DNA of 64,000 nucleotides from Owenia fusiformis (lineage: Eukaryota; Annelida; Polychaeta; Sabellida; Oweniidae). Shown piece by piece: positions 3,803 to 37,200 of the stretch. The DNA is taken from positions 23,381,936-23,445,935 of the forward strand of contig CAIIXF020000006.1 in NCBI GenBank assembly GCA_903813345.2, given 5' to 3'. The position numbers were made by a program, and so were the translations under genes. A model generated the notes under the pieces. That model did no database searches, was not told the origin of the DNA, and saw only the letters and a program-made list of their open reading frames with translations. The stretch's first letter is position 1. Each line of letters starts with the position of its first letter.

Positions 3803-5773
3803 TTTTTATGTCACCACCAAAAGTGGTGACATATTGTTATGGTCTCCGTTTTTTGGCGACGGCGTCCGGCGGTTGGAGGTTGGCGTCCGGCGTCCGGCGG
3901 TTGGCGTCCGGCGTCTGTAACAATTTCTTACAACTTCCTATAACTTAACAAATACTGTTTAGACTGACTTCAATTTTTTTCTAAATCATCTACATGTTCT
4001 CAGAAGTTCAAATCTGACTTTAGATTTGACATTTGACCTTCAATGACCTTCTCAAGGTCAAAAAGGTCTTTTTTCAACTTGCTTCACATTGACTAAATTT
4101 TTTTTCAAAATCATCTACATGTTCTCAGAAATTCAAATCTGACTTTAGATTTGACATTTGACCTTCAAATCTGACTTTAGATTTGACATTTGACCTTCAA
4201 TGACCTTCTCAAGGTCAAAAAAGGTCTGTTTTCACCTTGCTTCAAATTGACTAAATTTTTTTTTCAAAATCATCTACGTGTTCTCAGAAATTCAAATCTG
4301 ACTTAAGATTTGACTTAAGATTTGACATTTGACCTTCAATGACCTTCTCAAGGTCAAAAAAGGTCTGTTTTCAACTTGCTTCAAATTGACTAAAAAATTT
4401 TTTCAAAATCATCTACGTGTTCTCAGGAATTCAAATCTGACTTTAGATTTGACTTAAGATTTGACATTTGACCTTCAATGACCTTCTCAAAGTCAAAAAA
4501 GGTCAAAAAGGTCTTTTTTTCAACTTGCTTCAAATTGACTAAATTTTTTTTTCAAAATCATCTACGTGTTCTCAGGAATTCAAATCTGACTTTAGATTTG
4601 ACATTTGACCTTCAATGACCTTCTCAAAGTCAAAAAAGGTCAAAAAGGTCTTTTTTTCAACTTGCTTCAAATTGACTAAATTTTTTTTTCAAAATCATCT
4701 ACGTGTTCTCAGGAATTCAAATCTGACTTTAGATTTGACATTTGACCTTCAATGACCTTCTCAAAGTCAAAAAAGGTCAAAAAGGTCTTTTTTCAACTTG
4801 CTTCAAATTGACTAAATTTTTTTTTCAAAATCATCTACATGTTCTCAGAAATTCAAATCTGACTTTAGATTTGACATTTGACCTTCAAGGACCTTCTCAA
4901 TGTCAAAAAAGGTCAAAAAGGTATTTTTTCATCTTGCTTCAAATTGACTAAATTTTTTTTTCAAAATCATCTACATGTTCTCAGAAATTCAAATATGACT
5001 TTAGATTTGACTTTAGATTTGACATTTGACCTTCAATGACCTTCTCAAGGTCGAAAAAGGTCAAAAAGGTCTTTTTTCAACTTGCTTCAAATTGACTAAT
5101 TTTTTTTTTCAAAATCATCTACATGTTCTCAGAAATTCAAATCTGACTTTAGATTTGACATTTGACCTTTAATGACCTTCTCAAGGTCAAAAAAGGTCAA
5201 AAAGGTCTGTTTTCAACTTGCTTCAAATTGACCAACTTTTTTTTTCAAAATCATCTACATCTTTTCAGAAGTTCAAATTTGACTTTTCAAGTTCTCAGAA
5301 GTTCAAATCTGACTTTAGATTTGACCTTTGACCTTCAATGACCTTCTCAAGGTCTTTTTTCAACTTGCTTCAAATTGACTAATTTTTTTTTTCAAAATCA
5401 TCTACATGTTCTCAGAAGTTCAAATCCGACTTTAGATTTGACATTTGACCTTCAATGACCTTTTCAAGGTCAAAAAGGTCTTTTTTCAACTTGCTTCAAA
5501 TTTACTTAATTTTTGTTTCAAAATCATCTACATGTTCTCAGAAGTTCAAATCTGACTTTACATTTGACCTTCAATGACCTTCTCAATGTCAAAAAAAGTC
5601 AAAGAGGTATTTTTTCAACTTGCTTCAAATTGACGAATTTTTTTTTCAAAATCATCTACATGTTCTAAGAAGTTCAAATCAAACCTTCTTAAGGTCAAAA
5701 GGTATTTTCCAACTTGCTTTAAATTGACCAAATTGTTTTAGGTGGTGACATTTTGTCATGTTAATGCCTTGTT
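3803..5773 (+). mobile_element. Non-autonomous element with ATGTCACCACC termini and internal ~110 bp tandem repeats
   Basis: The left end has ATGTCACCACC at 3808, followed by a short hairpin (ACCACCAAAAGTGGTGAC). The right end has GGTGGTGACAT at 5741-5751, followed by TTAATGCCTTGTT. The ends are therefore 11 bp inverted repeats. The body is about 13 imperfect units of about 100-130 bp, each containing TGACCTTCAATGACCTTCTC followed by one to three AGGTC(A) motifs, an A/T homopolymer and ATCATCTAC. A GGCGTCCGGCG-rich segment lies next to the left hairpin. There is no transposase. A reverse-orientation copy lies at 35260-37001 and a decayed copy at 11485-11941. Confidence 0.75.
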
Positions 5774-25278: not shown

Positions 25279-28200
25279 CTGAAACAATAGAATAAATAAA
25301 CAAAAATAAAAAAAAAACTGTTTTGAGGTTCAGGGATAACCTCTTAAGCTCACTTTTATCAGCTTAAGCCTGTTCAAATCATTATTACCTACTATGAAAT
25401 AATGCTATTGTATAGAGAACAAATAGCAATATTTCATGTTTCAAATGTGTTGGTAGTTATAATTCCTTGATCTTTTTTGAACATATTTGATTCTTGCACA
25501 AAACAAATAACGTACTAGTTATCTAATGAATTTGATAAACACAACTTACCTGTATAAACATGGCATCATTTCTAACCTCGCCAAGTGCATTCAACAATTG
25601 GTCCAGACAAGTATATGGCAACCAAACACTTGGTGATGTGACATTCAATGAGGTCTTCAGACCGAAATATTCTCCTCCTTTCCCAAGAACTGCATCTATG
25701 TATTCTATAGCTAAATGGGCAGCATGGTCTAGCCAATCATGGTCCAGGTAAAGGCGCAGTAACTCTGCAGGATTTACTTTCTAAAAGTAGATATAATGCA
25801 TTAACTAATAACATGACAAAATGTCATAATTTATGTAATTATAAATGGTTACGATAACGCCCATCTCCACGAGTGAGCGCAGCGAATGAGTAAGATCAGC
25901 GATATCCAAGAGTGGATAAAAATGATAGCTGAGAAAATCATAGGATATCATATTTATCCTATGGTGGCTTTTTTGTATGGACTTGGATAATTAGACCTAA
26001 AAGTTGTTGCTTTCTAATTCTTTTCTAATTTCTTAATTTTATTTTCTTTGAACCAATTTTTATAAAATGATCGCATGAAAAATTCTCATTTTTACTGAGC
26101 ACATAACCTTGGAACTATATTGGCAAACAGACAAATGGTTATTACAATTTTTTCGAAATTCTTGTATTCAAATTTCTTTTCAATTTTTTTTTCAAATTTT
26201 TTTTTTCAATTTTTTTTCAGTTTTTGTTTTTCAAAATTTTATATTCAAATTTTTATCTTGTGTCGTCATCCCCATATATATTTGGTATCCATCAGATTAA
26301 AAAACCTTTATTCCATACTTTGTGTTATAGGTAAATAAAATGCAGGAATATAATTGATATCTGAAGCCAGCGGGTGATATCAGCGAGTGATATACATTGT
26401 ACATATCACCCGCTGATATCACCCACTCATCAGATCTACAACGTCACAAATTCATAGAGTAGAAACTGAGCCAGGGGACTTAACTACAAACCCTCATAAT
26501 CTACTAAGTATAGAATAAATCAGATATTAAATGCTCGATTTTTGATATTGGTTATATCCTGCAGTAAATACGGTTGCTCGGAATGATATATTGTATTTCC
26601 CTCAGATATGCCCTGTATCAAAAACCTCACATTCAATAACCTCTGTATGCTGTTTACTTATGCATATGTACTTCATATACCTTATATGCTGCTATGAACC
26701 AGTTGGGCAAGCTGAATCCCTGAGAGAGAAGTCTTAGTGCTACACACTTGTGATATGTGGAACCTTCAGTTGCATATTTATCAAGGTACAAATGTAGTAG
26801 TCTCCAAGCCTGATCAGCGGAACTAAAATTAGAAACATAATCTTGATGGCTTTAGGTCATGAAGTGGTAACATATTTTTGAAGACTTTTGGTATCTTTTG
26901 GTATATTTTTGATAATATTCTGTAGTAGCCTCTGTAACAATTGGTTACGCTTCTGTAATTACAACCATGCAATTATCTTGAATTATTTACTATGTGCCTT
27001 GCTGAATAAAATGTACCGTTTTACCTTATTTCTTTACTGTTGAGCGTCTGAGTGAGTTCATTATCATTGAGCCATGACCAGGCATCAGCTGTGTAATCAT
27101 TATCCCCTGCATGTAATATAAGAGCCTTACCTTATTTCTTTACTGTTGAGCGTCTGAGTGAGTTCATTATCATTGAGCCATGACCAGGCATCAGCTGTGT
27201 AATCGTTATCCCCCTGCATGTAATATAAGAGCCTTACCTTATTTCTTTACTGTTGAGTGTCTGAGTGAGTTCATTATCATTGAGCCATGACCAGGCATCA
27301 GCTGTGTAATCATTATATTTGCATGTAATATAAGAGCCTTACCTTATTTCTTTACTGTTGAGCGTCTGAGTGAGTTCATTATCATTGAGCCATGACCAGG
27401 CATCAGCTGTGTAATCATTATCCCCTGCATGTAATATAAGAGCCTTACTTTATTTCTTTACTGTTGAGCGTCTGAGTGAGTTCATTATCATTGAGCCATG
27501 ACCAGGCATCAGCTGTGTAATCGTTATCCCCCTGCATGTAATATAAGAGCCTTACCTTATTTCTTTACTGTTGAGTGTCTGAGTGAGTTCATTATCATTG
27601 AGCCATGACCAGGCATCAGCTGTGTAATCGTTATCTCCCTGCATGTAATATAAGAGCCTTACCTTATTTCTTTACTGTTGAGTGTCTGAGTGAGTTCATT
27701 ATCATTGAGCCATGACCAGGCATCAGCTGTGTAATCATTATCTCCCTGCATGTAATATAAGAGCCTTACCTTATTTCTTTACTGTTGAGTGTCTGAGTGA
27801 GTTCATTATCATTGAGCCATGACCAGGCATCAGCTGTGTAATCATTATCCCCTGCATGTAATATAAGAGCCTTACCTTATTTCTTTACTGTTGAGCGTCT
27901 GAGTGAGTTCATTATCATTAGCTGTGTAATCGTTATCCCCCTGCATGTAATATAAGAGCCTTACCTTATTTCTTTACTGTTGAGTGTCTGAGTGAGTTCA
28001 TTATCATTGAGCCATGACCAGGCATCAGCTGTGTAATCGTTATCTCCCTGCATGTAATATAAGAGCCTTACCTTATTTCTTTACTGTTGAGTGTCTGAGT
28101 GAGTTCATTATCATTGAGCCATGACCAGGCATCAGCTGTGTAATCATTATCTCCCTGCATGTAATATAAGAGCCTTACCTTATTTCTTTACTGTTGAGTG

Positions 28201-31200
28201 TCTGAGTGAGTTCATTATCATTGAGCCATGACCAGGCATCAGCTGTGTAATCGTTATCTCCCTGCATGTAATATAAGAGCCTTACCTTATTTCTTTACTG
28301 TTGAGTGTCTGAGTGAGTTCATTATCATTGAGCCATGACCAGGCATCAGTTGTGTAATCGTTATCCCCCTGCATGTAATATAAGAGCCTTACCTTATTTC
28401 TTTACTGTTGAGTGTCTGAGTGAGTTCATTATCATTGAGCCATGACCAGGCATCAGCTGTGTAATCGTTATCCCCCTGCATGTAATATAAGAGCCTTACC
28501 TTATTTCTTTACTGTTGAGTGTCTGAGTGAGTTCATTATCATTGAGCCATGACCAGGCATCAGCTGTGTAATCGTTATCCCCCTGCATGTAATATAAGAG
28601 CCTTACCTTATTTCTTTACTGTTGAGTGTCTGAGTGAGTTCATTATCATTGAGCCATGACCAGGCATCAGCTGTGTAATCATTATCTCCCTGCATGTAAT
28701 ATAAGAGCCTTACCTTATTTCTTTACTGTTGAGTGTCTGAGTGAGTTCATTATCATTGAGCCATGACCAGGCATCAGCTGTGTAATCGTTATCTCCCTGC
28801 ATGTAATATAAGAGCCTTACCTTATTTCTTTACTGTTGAGTGTCTGAGTGAGTTCATTATCATTGAGCCATGACCAGGCATCAGTTGTGTAATCGTTATC
28901 CCCCTGCATGTAATATAAGAGCCTTACCTTATTTCTTTACTGTTGAGTGTCTGAGTGAGTTTATTATCATTGAGCCATGACCAGGCATCAGCTGTGTAAT
29001 CGTTATCCCCCTGCATGTAATATAAGAGCCTTACCTTATTTCTTTACTGTTGAGTGTCTGAGTGAGTTCATTATCATTGAGCCATGACCAGGCATCAGCT
29101 GTGTAATCATTATCCTCCTGCATGTAATATAAGAGCCTTACCTTATTTCTTTACTGTTGAGTGTCTGAGTGAGTTCATTATCATTGAGCCATGACCAGGC
29201 ATCAGCTGTGTAATCCTTATCCTCCTGCATGTAATATAAGAGCCTTACCTTATTTCTTTACTGTTGAGTGTCTGAGTGAGTTCATTATCATTGAGCCATG
29301 ACCAGGCATCAGCTGTGTAATCCTTATCCTCCTGCATGTAATATAAGAGCCTTACCTTATTTCTTTACTGTTGAGTGTCTGAGTGAGTTCATTATCATTG
29401 AGCCATGACCAGGCATCAGCTGTGTAATCCTTATCCTCCTGCATGTAATATAAGAGCCTTACCTTATTTCTTTACTGTTGAGTGTCTGAGTGAGTTCATT
29501 ATCATTGAGCCATGACCAGGCATCAGCTGTGTAATCGTTATCCCCTTGCATGTAAGAACTACTATTCTGTGAAAGACGTATACACCTGGAACATAATAGT
29601 ATCAAATAGAGTAATTATTTTTTTGTATGTAGTCCAAGAAATAATGTGAAATACTATACATTTGTGGCACATGCATATGAGTATATATGAATAAATACTG
29701 AGAATCAAGCACTAGGTACATCTAAAAGTATATGTATGATTTTCTTAATAATCTCTTTTGAAATTGCTCTATAAATGAATAAGGAAGGACAGATGGATGC
29801 CTAGTCAATCCCGTAGGCTAAATGTGCAAGCTAAAAACTTCAGAGAATTGAAAACTAAGTACACGTACATGTATGTCTTATAAATATATGTATGATTGTC
29901 TTAAGGACCACTTAAATTGCCCTTACCTCGACGCAAGTCCCTCGAAGATGGTGGCCAAAGAGAGGCCATATGCTTTACTTAGTGTCACAGCATTATCAAA
30001 TAAACCAGCATTTACTAGGAGACCTATCGTTTCGGGGGCAGATAAAGTTGGACCTGCAAATAAAGTTCATTTAAGTTCAATCACATTTTCTTCGTGTACA
30101 GTATTTTCTTGTGACTTTTAAACTGCGATAGTGCTTCCTATGATGGGAGGGCTGTTAGTCACTTTTACGAAGGCCCCCAACGGGCTTTAAGGACCATTCA
30201 CGTAAAGCTTATATGGCAAATCATCAAGGCAACTGCCAAGTCGTCAAATGATGTGATTATGATTCAAGATATGACGTATCATATAAACTATGACTGGTCA
30301 GTGACATATTTACTCCATGGAGCAGCTATAAACAAACAAATAATCGTAACGTCACACATCTCTGTAACATGTGACATCATTAACATGTTACCTAACCAAC
30401 AACAAAACAAGAACACAAATGTGTACAAAATGTCCCCACCTATGGGTGATCCCGTCAAATGGTTATCCTAAAAATGAGTAGACAAGACTTTACCGACACA
30501 ATTTGAGGACGGAAAATCCAAAATGGCCACCTTAAAATTTACCCAGAATGCCAAAAAAATAGTCAGTTCTTGATTTTCATACTAAGAACCACCCCTAAAA
30601 ATTTGAAATTGATCCGTCACACAGTTAACCAGAAAACATGTAAACAAGACTTTACAGACAAGATTTGAGGACAGAAAATCCAAAATGGCTGCCTTGACAT
30701 TTATCCAGAATGCCAAAAAACTAATCTGTTCTATATTTTCATACTAAGAATCATCCCTGAAAATTTGAAATTGATCTACCAAACGGTTCACCTGAGAATG
30801 CGTAGACAAGACTTTACAAACAAATTTTAGGACAGAAAATTCAAAATGGCTGCCTTGACATTTACCCAGAATGCCCAAAAGCTAATCAGATCTAGATTTT
30901 CATACTAAGAATCATCCCTGAAAATTTGAAATTGATCAACCAAACGGTTCACCTAAAAATGCGTAGACAAGACTTTACGGGCAAGATTTTAAGACGGAAA
31001 ATCCAAAATGGCTGCCTTGACATTTACCCAGAATGCCAAAAAACTAATCAGATCTAGATTTTCATACTGAAAATCATCCCTGAAAATTTGAAATTGATCT
31101 ACCAAACGGTTCACCTGGAAATGCGTAGACAAGACTTTACAGACAAGATTTCAGGACGGAAAATCCAAAATGGCTGCCTTGACATTTACCCAGAATGCCC

Positions 31201-34200: not shown

Positions 34201-37200
34201 TTGTCTTTGGAGACCTTTTAGACCAGGGAGCTCCCGACCGAGACGCATGCCATACTCATACATAACACTTCCAGCTGAAAGCAAATAAAAATAAATGATC
34301 AGAAGAGAAGTGTAAAATACTGGAAGCAATCCTTATAACAAGGCATCAACATGACAAAATACTCCCAGCCCGTTAGTTTCCCCCCCCCCCCTGTAAGAAC
34401 AAGATGGTGCAACACCTGCCAAATTCAAAAAACAATTCAAATATGGTTCAATAATTCTAAATTTCGCCAAAAAATGTGATATCATTGTGATATCAATCGT
34501 ACATGGTGTGCAATGAACCCAGTATTAAATATACAAACTCTCTCCAAGGAGATTCTAAGTGAAAGGGTGAATTATTTTATTCCATTTGAACTTAGTTAGC
34601 CTCTTTGAATGTTTAGCACATCTAAATAAATATCTGGTTGGGCAAAACTAATCCATTACATGGATTAGTGTGGCCAGTTTATAATGCCCAACTTGCTGGG
34701 TAATATTTTATAATGAAATAAATGGTCATATAATATTATTCATGCCAACAGAATTCTATTATCTTTTGTAAACTATCTATGCAACTAGCAGGTATAGCGA
34801 AGTTGCACAAAAACACTTAAATATCATTCATGAGATCCTGTACTATTTATCGCAGTTTTACCAAAGTTTAACCTTTTTACAGATCAGTCTAGTCTTACAA
34901 CATACAGTACATTCAAAGGCTGTATTAAGTCCATATGAACTATTTTATCTCAAAATGTTTTCATAGGCAAGGCTAAAACAAGTGATAGCAACTAATGAAA
35001 AATAGGTTATATGTCTCAGTCTTAAGTAAACAATGACAAGTATGCAGATTTTTATTGTATACAAAGTTTAATACATTAACACAGAAAGGAGCTTTCAGCA
35101 ACAGGTTCATATATAAAGTAAGTATATTTTTCTTTTAATACCATGAAGTCAAACCAAAGAGAACATAGTTATAGTCATAAATAAACATACTGTACTAACT
35201 GCATATAAATTAAGGATTTAAGCCCTGGGTTCAGTGCATTGTAGACCAAATCATTGCTCAACAAGGCATTAACATGACAAAATGTCACCACCTAAAACAA
35301 TTTGGTCAATTTAAAGCAAGTTGAAAAAATACCTCTTTGACTTTTTTTGACATTGAGAAGGTCATTGAAGGTCAAATGTCAAATGTAAAGTCAGATTTGA
35401 ACTTCTGAGAACATGTAGATGATTTTGAAAAAAAAATTAAGTAAATTTGAAGCAAGTTGAAAAAAGACCTTTTTGACCTTGAAAAGGTCATTGAAGGTCA
35501 AATGTCAAATCTAAAGTCAGATTTGAACTTTTGAGAACATGTAGATGATTTTGAAAAAAAAATTAAGTAAATTTGAAGCAAGTTGAAAAAAGACCTTTTT
35601 GACCTTGAAGGTCAAAGGTCAAATCTAAAGTCAGATTTGAACTTCTGAGAACTTGTTAAGTCAAATTTGAACTTCTGAAAAGATGTAGATGATTTTGAAA
35701 AAAAAATTTGGTCAATTTGAAGCAAGTTGAAAACAGACCTTTTTGACCTTTTTTGACCTTGAGAAGGTCATTAAAGGTGAAATGTGAAATCTAAAGTCAG
35801 ATTTGAATTTCTGAGAACATGTAGATGATTTTGAAAAAAAAAATTAGTCAATTTGAAGCAAGTTGAAAAAAGACCTTTTTGACCTTGAGAAGGTCATTGA
35901 AGGTCAAATGTCAAATCTAAAGTCAAATCTTAAGTCATATTTGAATTTCTGAGAACATGTAGATGATTTTGAAAAAAAAATTTAGTCAATTTGAAGCAAG
36001 TTGAAAACAGACCTTTTTGACCTTTTTTGACATTGAGAAGGTCATTGAAGGTCAAATGTCAAATCTAAAGTCAGATTTGAATTTCTGATAACATGTAGAT
36101 GATTTTGAAAAAAAAATTTAGTCAATTTGAAGCAAGTTGAAAACAGACCTTTTTGACCTTTTTTGACATTGAGAAGGTCATTGAAGGTCAAATGTCAAAT
36201 CTAAAGTCAGATTTGAATTTCTGATAACATGTAGATGATTTTGAAAAAAAAATTTAGTCAATTTGAAGCAAGTTGAAAAAAGACCTTTTTGACCTTTTTT
36301 GACTTTGAGAAGGTCATTGAAGGTCAAATGTCAAATCTTAAGTCAAATCTAAAGTCAGATTTGAATTTCTGAGAACACGTAGATGATTTTGAAAAAAAAT
36401 TTTAGTCAATTTGAAGCAAGTTGAAAACAGACCTTTTTGACCTTGAGAAGGTCATTGAAGGTCAAATGTCAAATCTTAAGTCAAATCTTAAGTCAGATTT
36501 GAATTTCTGAGAACACGTAGATGATTTTGAAAAAAAAATTTAGTCAATTTGAAGCAAGTTGAAAACAGACCTTTTTGACCTTGAGAAGGTCATTGAAGGT
36601 CAAATGTCAAATCTAAAGTCAGATTTGAAGGTCAAATGTCAAATCTAAAGTCAAATCTAAAGTGAGATTTGAATTTCTGAGAACATGTAGATGATTTTGA
36701 AAAAAAATTTAGTCAATGTGAAGCAAGTTGAAAAAAGACCTTTTTGACCTTGAGAAGGTCATTGAAGGTCAAATGTCAAATCTAAAGTCAGATTTGAACT
36801 TCTGAGAACATGTAGATGATTTAGAAAAAAATTGAAGTCAATCTAAACAGTATTTGTTATGTTATAGGAAGTTGTAAGAAATTGTTACAGACGCCAACCG
36901 CCGGACGCCAACCACCAACCGCCGGACGCCGGACGCCAACCGCCGTCGCAAAAAAACGGAGACCATAACAATATGTCACCACTTTTGGTGGTGACATAAA
37001 AAGGTGTTATTTTAACCTTCGAGATGTGAGATGCGCAGATTACAGGCTTTAGCACTATTAGTGAATATGAATACACACTTTAGTACTAAAGTGAATATGA
37101 ATACACACTAAACATTAAGGTGAATATGAATACAAGTTTAAGTGCTGAAATGAACGTGAAAAAACTTTAGTCCTAAAGTTAATATGAATAAACACTTTGG

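What the first reader, a model, noticed from the sequence alone, without database searches (positions are those of the whole stretch)
26823..29585. NUP160 exon end and its 5' splice site amplified into a 24-unit array
Seen: the last ~83 bp of a NUP160 exon plus ~15 bp of intron repeats 24 times at 105-107 bp (one 89 bp unit). The true exon is the unit nearest the promoter and the only one with the CIRLSQNSS-coding part. At least 22 extra AAATAAG/GTAAGG donors sit in a 2.6 kb intron of an essential gene. Read-through meets ATA AGG TAA at once, and 82-83 bp copies would shift frame. Inference: splicing must pick the first of 24 near-identical donors, or the gene tolerates unproductive isoforms. 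The 24 bp between copies is too short for a normal intron.
Basis: partly seen in the sequence, partly recalled or inferred. Interest (0 to 1): 0.85.

Follow-up and report, generated by a model that had tools for sequence, protein, structure and literature searches.

The report
Exon-edge tandem array in NUP160 gene
The end of one NUP160 exon, with its splice signal, is repeated 24 times into the next intron; it is a large example of a little-known kind of repeat, described in lancelets and one human gene, that also sits at other exons of this animal's genome.

Summary
The array is real in the assembly. NUP160 exon 29463-29585 (minus strand) is followed by 23 further copies of its last ~83-100 nt with its 5' splice site, filling 2,438 of the intron's 2,640 nt. 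Twenty-two of 24 donors are the identical AAGGTAAGG. Only the first gives an open NUP160 frame: all 23 other donors, and all 68 single cassettes with the ACATGCAG acceptor, meet a stop. One NUP160 locus was found.

It is neither a new kind nor a one-off. It matches amphioxus 'mirages' and the human CBS 31-bp VNTR. This genome looks lophotrochozoan, not amphioxus, and holds more. In 34 arrays of tandem donors, the frame ending at the first donor matched Pfam at E<=1e-3 in 9 (OPA1, FANCI, BLOC1S5 and others), against 0 of 34 antisense controls. Acceptor-side mirror images exist (a PI3/PI4-kinase, VPS33A).

Best reading: minisatellites born at exon edges survive because splicing uses the outermost site, so extra copies fall into the intron. 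Which donors are used in RNA is untested. New member of a known kind, unusually large, in a genome where the kind recurs.

The parts
29463..29585 (-). NUP160 exon, 123 nt, phase 2 to 2; its last part is copy 1 of the array
27025..29462 (-). array copies 2-24 (18 x 107, 3 x 106, 105 and 89 nt), each an exon end with a 5' splice site; intronic
26823..29462 (-). intron, 2,640 nt, of which 2,438 nt are array
26681..26822 (-). next NUP160 exon
29927..30066 (-). previous NUP160 exon (end 29927 from the donor; far edge approximate, from the open reading frame)

Best explanation
It is a donor-side 'mirage': a minisatellite seeded by tandem duplication of the 3' end of a NUP160 exon with its 5' splice site, then enlarged by unequal exchange and homogenised. 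Splicing most likely joins donor 1 (the donor nearest the exon's own acceptor, which fixes the exon at 123 nt) to the exon at 26822, and removes the whole array as intron. Expansions at exon edges persist because the outermost site still defines the exon, so the extra copies become near-neutral intron; mis-spliced RNA carries an early stop and would decay. Shown: anatomy, frames, stops, one gene locus, recurrence of such arrays at both exon edges in this genome. Inferred: use of donor 1, the exchange mechanism, near-neutrality, decay of errors.
For: Anatomy and frames. Copies fall in 13 types, with a run D-E-F at units 7-9 and again at 12-14 (133 of 5000 shuffled orders hold a repeated run of three different types), as block duplication would give. 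Base changes occur in 8 unit columns, 1 of them in the 9 donor columns, so decoy donors look neither purged nor specially kept. Tandem arrays are abundant: 14.7% of the window, this array included. Donor arrays elsewhere abut real exons: 9 of 34 first-donor frames hit Pfam at E<=1e-3 against 0 of 34 antisense. In acceptor-side arrays the last copy runs into the rest of the exon: PI3/PI4-kinase E 5e-12 and AMP-binding E 1.5e-13, VPS33A E 2.3e-22, among six loci picked by eye. The amphioxus globin paper says mirages appear not to interfere with regular splicing (PMC3087553, passages). In human CBS a duplicated intron 7/exon 8 boundary still yields normal mRNA (PMC2630376, passages).
Against: No RNA. 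Nothing local singles out donor 1 among the exact donors. From recall, in vitro work with duplicated strong 5' splice sites often favours the intron-proximal site, the wrong end here. The decoy acceptor has 11 pyrimidines in 20, not much worse than the true sites (13 and 12), so cassette inclusion is not excluded. 25 of 34 surveyed arrays gave no Pfam hit at E<=1e-3; some look like plain intronic repeats. In the FANCI array (L040) 7 of 30 further donors, and in the tetraspanin-like array (L021) 16 of 16, can be reached without a stop.
Confidence: 0.84

Rival explanations
1. A leaky ladder: several of the 24 donors, or cassette units spliced across non-adjacent copies, are used at appreciable rate. 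The products carry stops and decay, so unit number sets NUP160 output (a poison-site array).
For: 22 donors are identical; 22 of 23 repeat units carry an acceptor-like ACATGCAG; 23 of 23 alternative donors and 68 of 68 such cassettes give a stop; predicted accessibility does not favour donor 1.
Against: No RNA or conservation evidence. Amphioxus mirages are reported to splice normally. Most such arrays here also carry stops (11 of 13 picked by eye), as chance reading would give, so stops are no sign of design.
Confidence: 0.1
2. Assembly artefact: one or a few real units inflated by the assembler.
For: Raw reads were not available; near-identical tandem copies are error-prone.
Against: 13 unit types, four unit lengths besides copy 1 and a block pattern; similar arrays at other loci.
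Confidence: 0.04
3. The later copies are real extra exons that add NUP160 sequence.
For: Within each unit the exon frame itself is open.
Against: Unit spacing 107 nt breaks frame and each donor supplies a stop; 68 of 68 ACATGCAG cassettes stop. 61 of 562 acceptor-donor combinations using any AG stay open, but through purine-rich AGs.
Confidence: 0.02

Closest known systems
Amphioxus 'mirages' (Adh3, globins BflGb6 and BflGb9, troponin C, PGBD5 and others)
   Same: Minisatellite-like tandem copies of an exon-intron boundary, splice signals included; either exon edge; concerted evolution; copies lie in the intron (PMC3087553 passages; PMC3902484 passage).
   Different: This genome looks lophotrochozoan. 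24 units here against 6 and 3 in the two BflGb6 haplotypes. RT-PCR evidence exists for amphioxus, none here. The original Adh paper was not held.
Human CBS 31-bp VNTR, c.1444_1467+7(16_21)
   Same: By its name the unit is 24 nt of exon end plus 7 nt of intron, in 16-21 copies: the same geometry with nearly the same copy number (PMC2630376 passages).
   Different: 31 against 107 nt. Polymorphic in people. Alternative splicing at the VNTR is recalled from Lievers 2001, which was not held.
Internal tandem repeats at human exon-intron boundaries in segmental duplications
   Same: Minisatellites that straddle exon-intron boundaries and can alter splicing (PMC2812944 passages).
   Different: About 30-bp units, 4 copies on average; recent primate paralogues.
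Intron gain by tandem duplication of exon with splice motifs (potato RdRp)
   Same: A tandem duplication with splice motifs turns exon-like DNA into intron.
   Different: There a duplication makes a new intron; here an existing intron is lengthened. Paper seen only in a search listing (PMC4974935).

Membership tests
Mirage (exon-boundary minisatellite) | tandem array of near-identical units | tested here: met
   24 copies
Mirage (exon-boundary minisatellite) | unit spans an exon-intron boundary with its splice signal | tested here: met
   the exon is supported by NUP160 homology
Mirage (exon-boundary minisatellite) | the copy at the array edge is the authentic exon, the others intronic | tested here: met
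   by frame and homology; not by RNA
Mirage (exon-boundary minisatellite) | regular splicing not disturbed | not testable with these tools
   no RNA data
Mirage (exon-boundary minisatellite) | length differs between alleles | not testable with these tools
   one assembly, one locus found
Poison-exon regulation | candidate alternative exons introduce an early stop | tested here: met
   68 of 68 ACATGCAG cassettes
Poison-exon regulation | the exons are included in RNA and conserved | not testable with these tools
   no RNA and no related eukaryote genomes held
Recursive splice site | pyrimidine tract and AG directly before GTAAG | tested here: not met
   the sequence before GTAAGG is CAACAGTAAAGAAATAAG, purine-rich

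The most novel reading that the evidence does not exclude
In this lophotrochozoan lineage exon-edge minisatellites are a genome-wide class (perhaps a hundred or more genes), on both donor and acceptor edges. The splicing machinery must routinely take the outermost of up to dozens of identical sites, so these loci form a natural copy-number series for the rule by which exon definition beats site proximity; in some genes the leftover leakage tunes expression by unit number.
Probability: 0.3. Interest if true: 0.75.

Novelty: new member of a known kind. Interest (0 to 1): 0.52.

Why it matters
The locus puts 22 identical 5' splice sites in a row, the first of them the exon's own, and only that one is productive. 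It is a natural test of whether splicing picks the site nearest the upstream acceptor or the one nearest the intron's end. The survey suggests that exon-edge minisatellites, described in the papers found here from some amphioxus and human genes, recur through at least one lophotrochozoan genome. They lengthen introns quickly, can mislead gene prediction, and offer raw material for new introns or exons.

Tried and rejected
Species: contigs C1-C12 appear with lengths shown of 32-62 Mb, and 498 Mb resembles Owenia fusiformis (505.8 Mb, 12 chromosome-scale scaffolds; passages of PMC9977687), but this was not tested and is not claimed. Mollusc haemocyanin not found (not decisive); no COX1 match; the 18S search failed and was not repeated.

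Second NUP160 gene: none found; all 27 reported matches are in the window. Local RNA structure as the chooser of donor 1: no difference from the other exact donors; the two variant donors are predicted more open, 0.144 and 0.104. Intron flank as source of the 24-nt spacer: 1297 of 2000 shuffles as good. Recursive splicing: no pyrimidine tract. Myosin-head exons as a look for arrays not chosen by a splice motif: 92 matches listed (65 of 210 candidates scored), by eye none repeated at about 100-bp spacing, so such arrays are not at most exons.

Survey limits. Only the first 100 of 527 matches and 100 of 598 are shown. They hold, by my count, 23 and 15 arrays, one shared. I fetched 20 of the 23 (three left out by the 20-region limit) and the 14 new ones of the 15; L051 and L052 may belong together. 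Six of 34 peptides were under 20 aa, were not scanned and count as misses. At E<=0.1 the tally is 13 of 34 (one, L034 DUF4322, looks spurious) against 2 of 34 antisense. FANCI scored below its curated cut-off (25.6 against 37.8 bits). The 13 arrays, and the 6 acceptor loci out of 26 arrays that I count, were picked by eye. PDB searches gave weak support for L039 (ABCC5, 0.01) and L025 (SDA1, 0.029) and nothing for L026, L030 and L033. Pattern counts against the reversed-pattern control are 527/312, 598/186 and, for acceptors, 86/27; they count overlapping matches, not arrays.

Papers. One search gave the amphioxus lead. Among the titles listed (one search lists 10 of 23) I saw no report of such arrays in annelids or molluscs; I did not open those other papers, apart from passages of PMC2812944 and of a chicken MUC2 paper, which was not relevant. 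One search found the CBS paper; one search found nothing on CBS VNTR splicing. One search gave no paper for the proximity rule, which stays recalled.
Full report
What is there. The minus strand of the window carries NUP160: exon peptides match human NUP160 in the PDB (E 4.4e-96) and Pfam TPR_Nup160_C (E 1.3e-80). The exon at 29463-29585 is 123 nt, enters and leaves in phase 2, and reads CIRLSQNSSSYMQGDNDYTADAWSWLNDNELTQTLNSKEI. Directly after its donor come 23 more copies of its last part, ending at 27025. Unit lengths are 107 (18 units), 106 (3), 105 (1) and 89 (1). The array makes up 2,438 of the intron's 2,640 nt, leaving 202 nt of unique intron before the exon at 26681-26822. A genome-wide DNA search reports the sequence only here (24 places), and a protein search reports NUP160 exons only here (27 matches).

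The unit. Most units read GTAAGGCTCTTATATTACATGCAG and then 83 nt of exon ending AAATAAG. The first 4-6 nt are intron. The rest of the 24-nt spacer is better explained by the exon (TTACATGCA occurs in both; 16 of 2000 shuffled spacers align as well) than by the intron flank (1297 of 2000). The last copy's donor, GTAAAACGG, runs into the unique intron, so it is probably the ancestral junction; the stronger GTAAGG would have arisen within the array (inference). Twenty-two donors are AAGGTAAGG (U1 duplex -10.0 kcal/mol by ViennaRNA), one is AAAGTAAGG (-5.0) and the last is AAGGTAAAA (-6.8).

Consequences for the message. Only donor 1 joins to the next exon in an open frame. With any of the other 23 donors the same stop follows the exon at once. 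All 68 combinations of an ACATGCAG acceptor with a donor 20-400 nt downstream, as one cassette exon, also meet a stop within the cassette. With every AG in the array allowed as acceptor, 61 of 562 combinations stay open, through AGs such as GTAAG or CAACAG that lack a pyrimidine tract (that they are poor acceptors is my judgement). Skipping the exon would be in frame. Predicted local accessibility of donor 1 (0.012) is like that of the other exact donors (0.009-0.021). What marks donor 1 is its position next to the exon's own acceptor.

How the array evolves. Thirteen unit types occur in the order AAABCDEFGGDEFEHIFEJKLMK (units 2-24). The run D-E-F recurs five units apart; 133 of 5000 shuffled orders contain a repeated run of three different types. 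This fits, without proving, duplication of blocks by unequal exchange. Indels apart, bases differ in 8 alignment columns of the 23 repeat units, 1 of them among the 9 donor columns, so there is no sign that decoy donors are removed or specially preserved.

Known kind. Minisatellite-like copies of exon-intron boundaries were named 'mirages' in amphioxus Adh and later seen in other genes. The globin paper reports 6 and 3 units in two haplotypes of BflGb6 and says its RT-PCR, with the Adh3 data, suggests no interference with regular splicing (PMC3087553, passages). Another paper adds PGBD5 and cites troponin C (PMC3902484, passage). In humans the CBS 31-bp VNTR is written c.1444_1467+7(16_21), that is, exon end plus 7 nt of intron in 16-21 copies, and the same gene has a 68-bp duplicated intron 7/exon 8 boundary that is spliced to normal mRNA (PMC2630376, passages). 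Human boundary repeats in segmental duplications are also described (PMC2812944, passages). The NUP160 array meets the structural criteria that could be tested.

Not amphioxus. The own-genome Hox cluster contains a homeodomain followed by NNIEKLTGP, the Lox5-type signature of lophotrochozoans (signature recalled; sequences). Window GC is 34%. The species was not identified.

Not alone. A scan for three AGGTAAGT spaced 78-108 nt apart gave 527 matches (reversed control 312); AAGGTAAG gave 598 (control 186). From the 100 rows shown in each I fetched 34 arrays, took the longest open frame ending at the first donor, and scanned it against Pfam. Nine of 34 match at E<=1e-3: Muted (BLOC1S5), NIF-type phosphatase, GFO/IDH oxidoreductase, Rubicon-homology domain, FANCI, OPA1, tRNA-binding domain, sodium:neurotransmitter symporter and a class II tRNA synthetase. 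The eleventh frame of the second set had no hit. Antisense controls from the same stretches: 0 of 34. At E<=0.1 it is 13 against 2. Misses include arrays that look like plain intronic repeats (for example L027 and L028). Among 13 exon-like arrays picked by eye from L021-L040, read-through meets a stop before any further exact donor in 11; the exceptions are L021 (tetraspanin-like, all 16 further donors reachable) and L040 (FANCI, 7 of 30).

Mirror image. The acceptor pattern TTTTGCAG gave 86 matches (control 27), which I count as 26 arrays. In five of six loci picked by eye the last copy, as I read it, runs into a longer open exon. Three have firm homology: PI3/PI4-kinase and AMP-binding enzyme and VPS33A; a fourth is weak (2OG-Fe(II) oxygenase, 0.0062). 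Antisense controls: 0 of 6. So in these cases the copy that joins the rest of the exon is the outermost one, and the others lie in the intron.

Explanation. Tandem arrays are abundant here (14.7% of the window, this array included). An expansion that starts in an exon would normally wreck the protein. It can persist if it also contains the splice site, because the outermost site still defines the exon and the extra copies become intron. This filter would account for donor-side and acceptor-side arrays, for housekeeping genes being hit, and for the lack of a trace of selection on the decoys. It stays an inference until RNA and a full count of exon-internal arrays are available. Scaling the shown rows (23 arrays in 100 of 527 matches; 15 in 100 of 598) and the share that abut exons suggests something like a hundred such loci for these two motifs and this spacing; this is rough.

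Verdict. It is a large new example of a known kind, in a genome where the kind recurs. Interest is moderate: the single locus is less unique than it looked, but the set of loci makes the rule of splice-site choice among identical sites testable in nature.

Noticed in passing
window 37771-59942 (+): Five tandem copies of a three-part N-acetyltransferase gene (closest Pfam Hisat_C, E 6.2e-6, just under its cut-off) lie on the opposite strand between NUP160 exons near 34.3 kb and 61.8 kb, so apparently nested in a NUP160 intron.
   Followed up: partly
G000 C9:37986009-37994334 (-): Twelve myosin-head matches to the same profile part (about 18-84), 0.3-1.9 kb apart: probably a cluster of alternative muscle myosin exons.
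   Followed up: no
L021 (G000 C1:441446-444200): Tetraspanin-like exon (Pfam E 0.016) with 17 exact donors at 54-nt or 108-nt steps; the units are in frame and stop-free, so use of later donors would add 18 residues per unit.
   Followed up: partly
window 4172-5680 and 35294-36798: The same ~136-bp minisatellite in opposite orientations, each beside GC-rich CCGGCG-type repeats; looks like a dispersed repeat family.
   Followed up: no
L041 (G000 C10:27219200-27221200): PI3/PI4-kinase exon (HVDFGYILGRDPKPM) whose 3' splice site and first ~56 nt are repeated about 17 times upstream at 79 nt.
   Followed up: partly
L046 (G000 C12:14246300-14248000): Acceptor-side array about 3 kb upstream of myosin-head matches (C12:14250203-14251441); the exon reads like the start of a myosin motor but had no Pfam hit.
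   Followed up: no
window 27025-29462: Unit variation is concentrated in a short G-rich stretch just after ACATGCA (4 of the 8 variable columns lie in columns 41-48); cause unknown.
   Followed up: no
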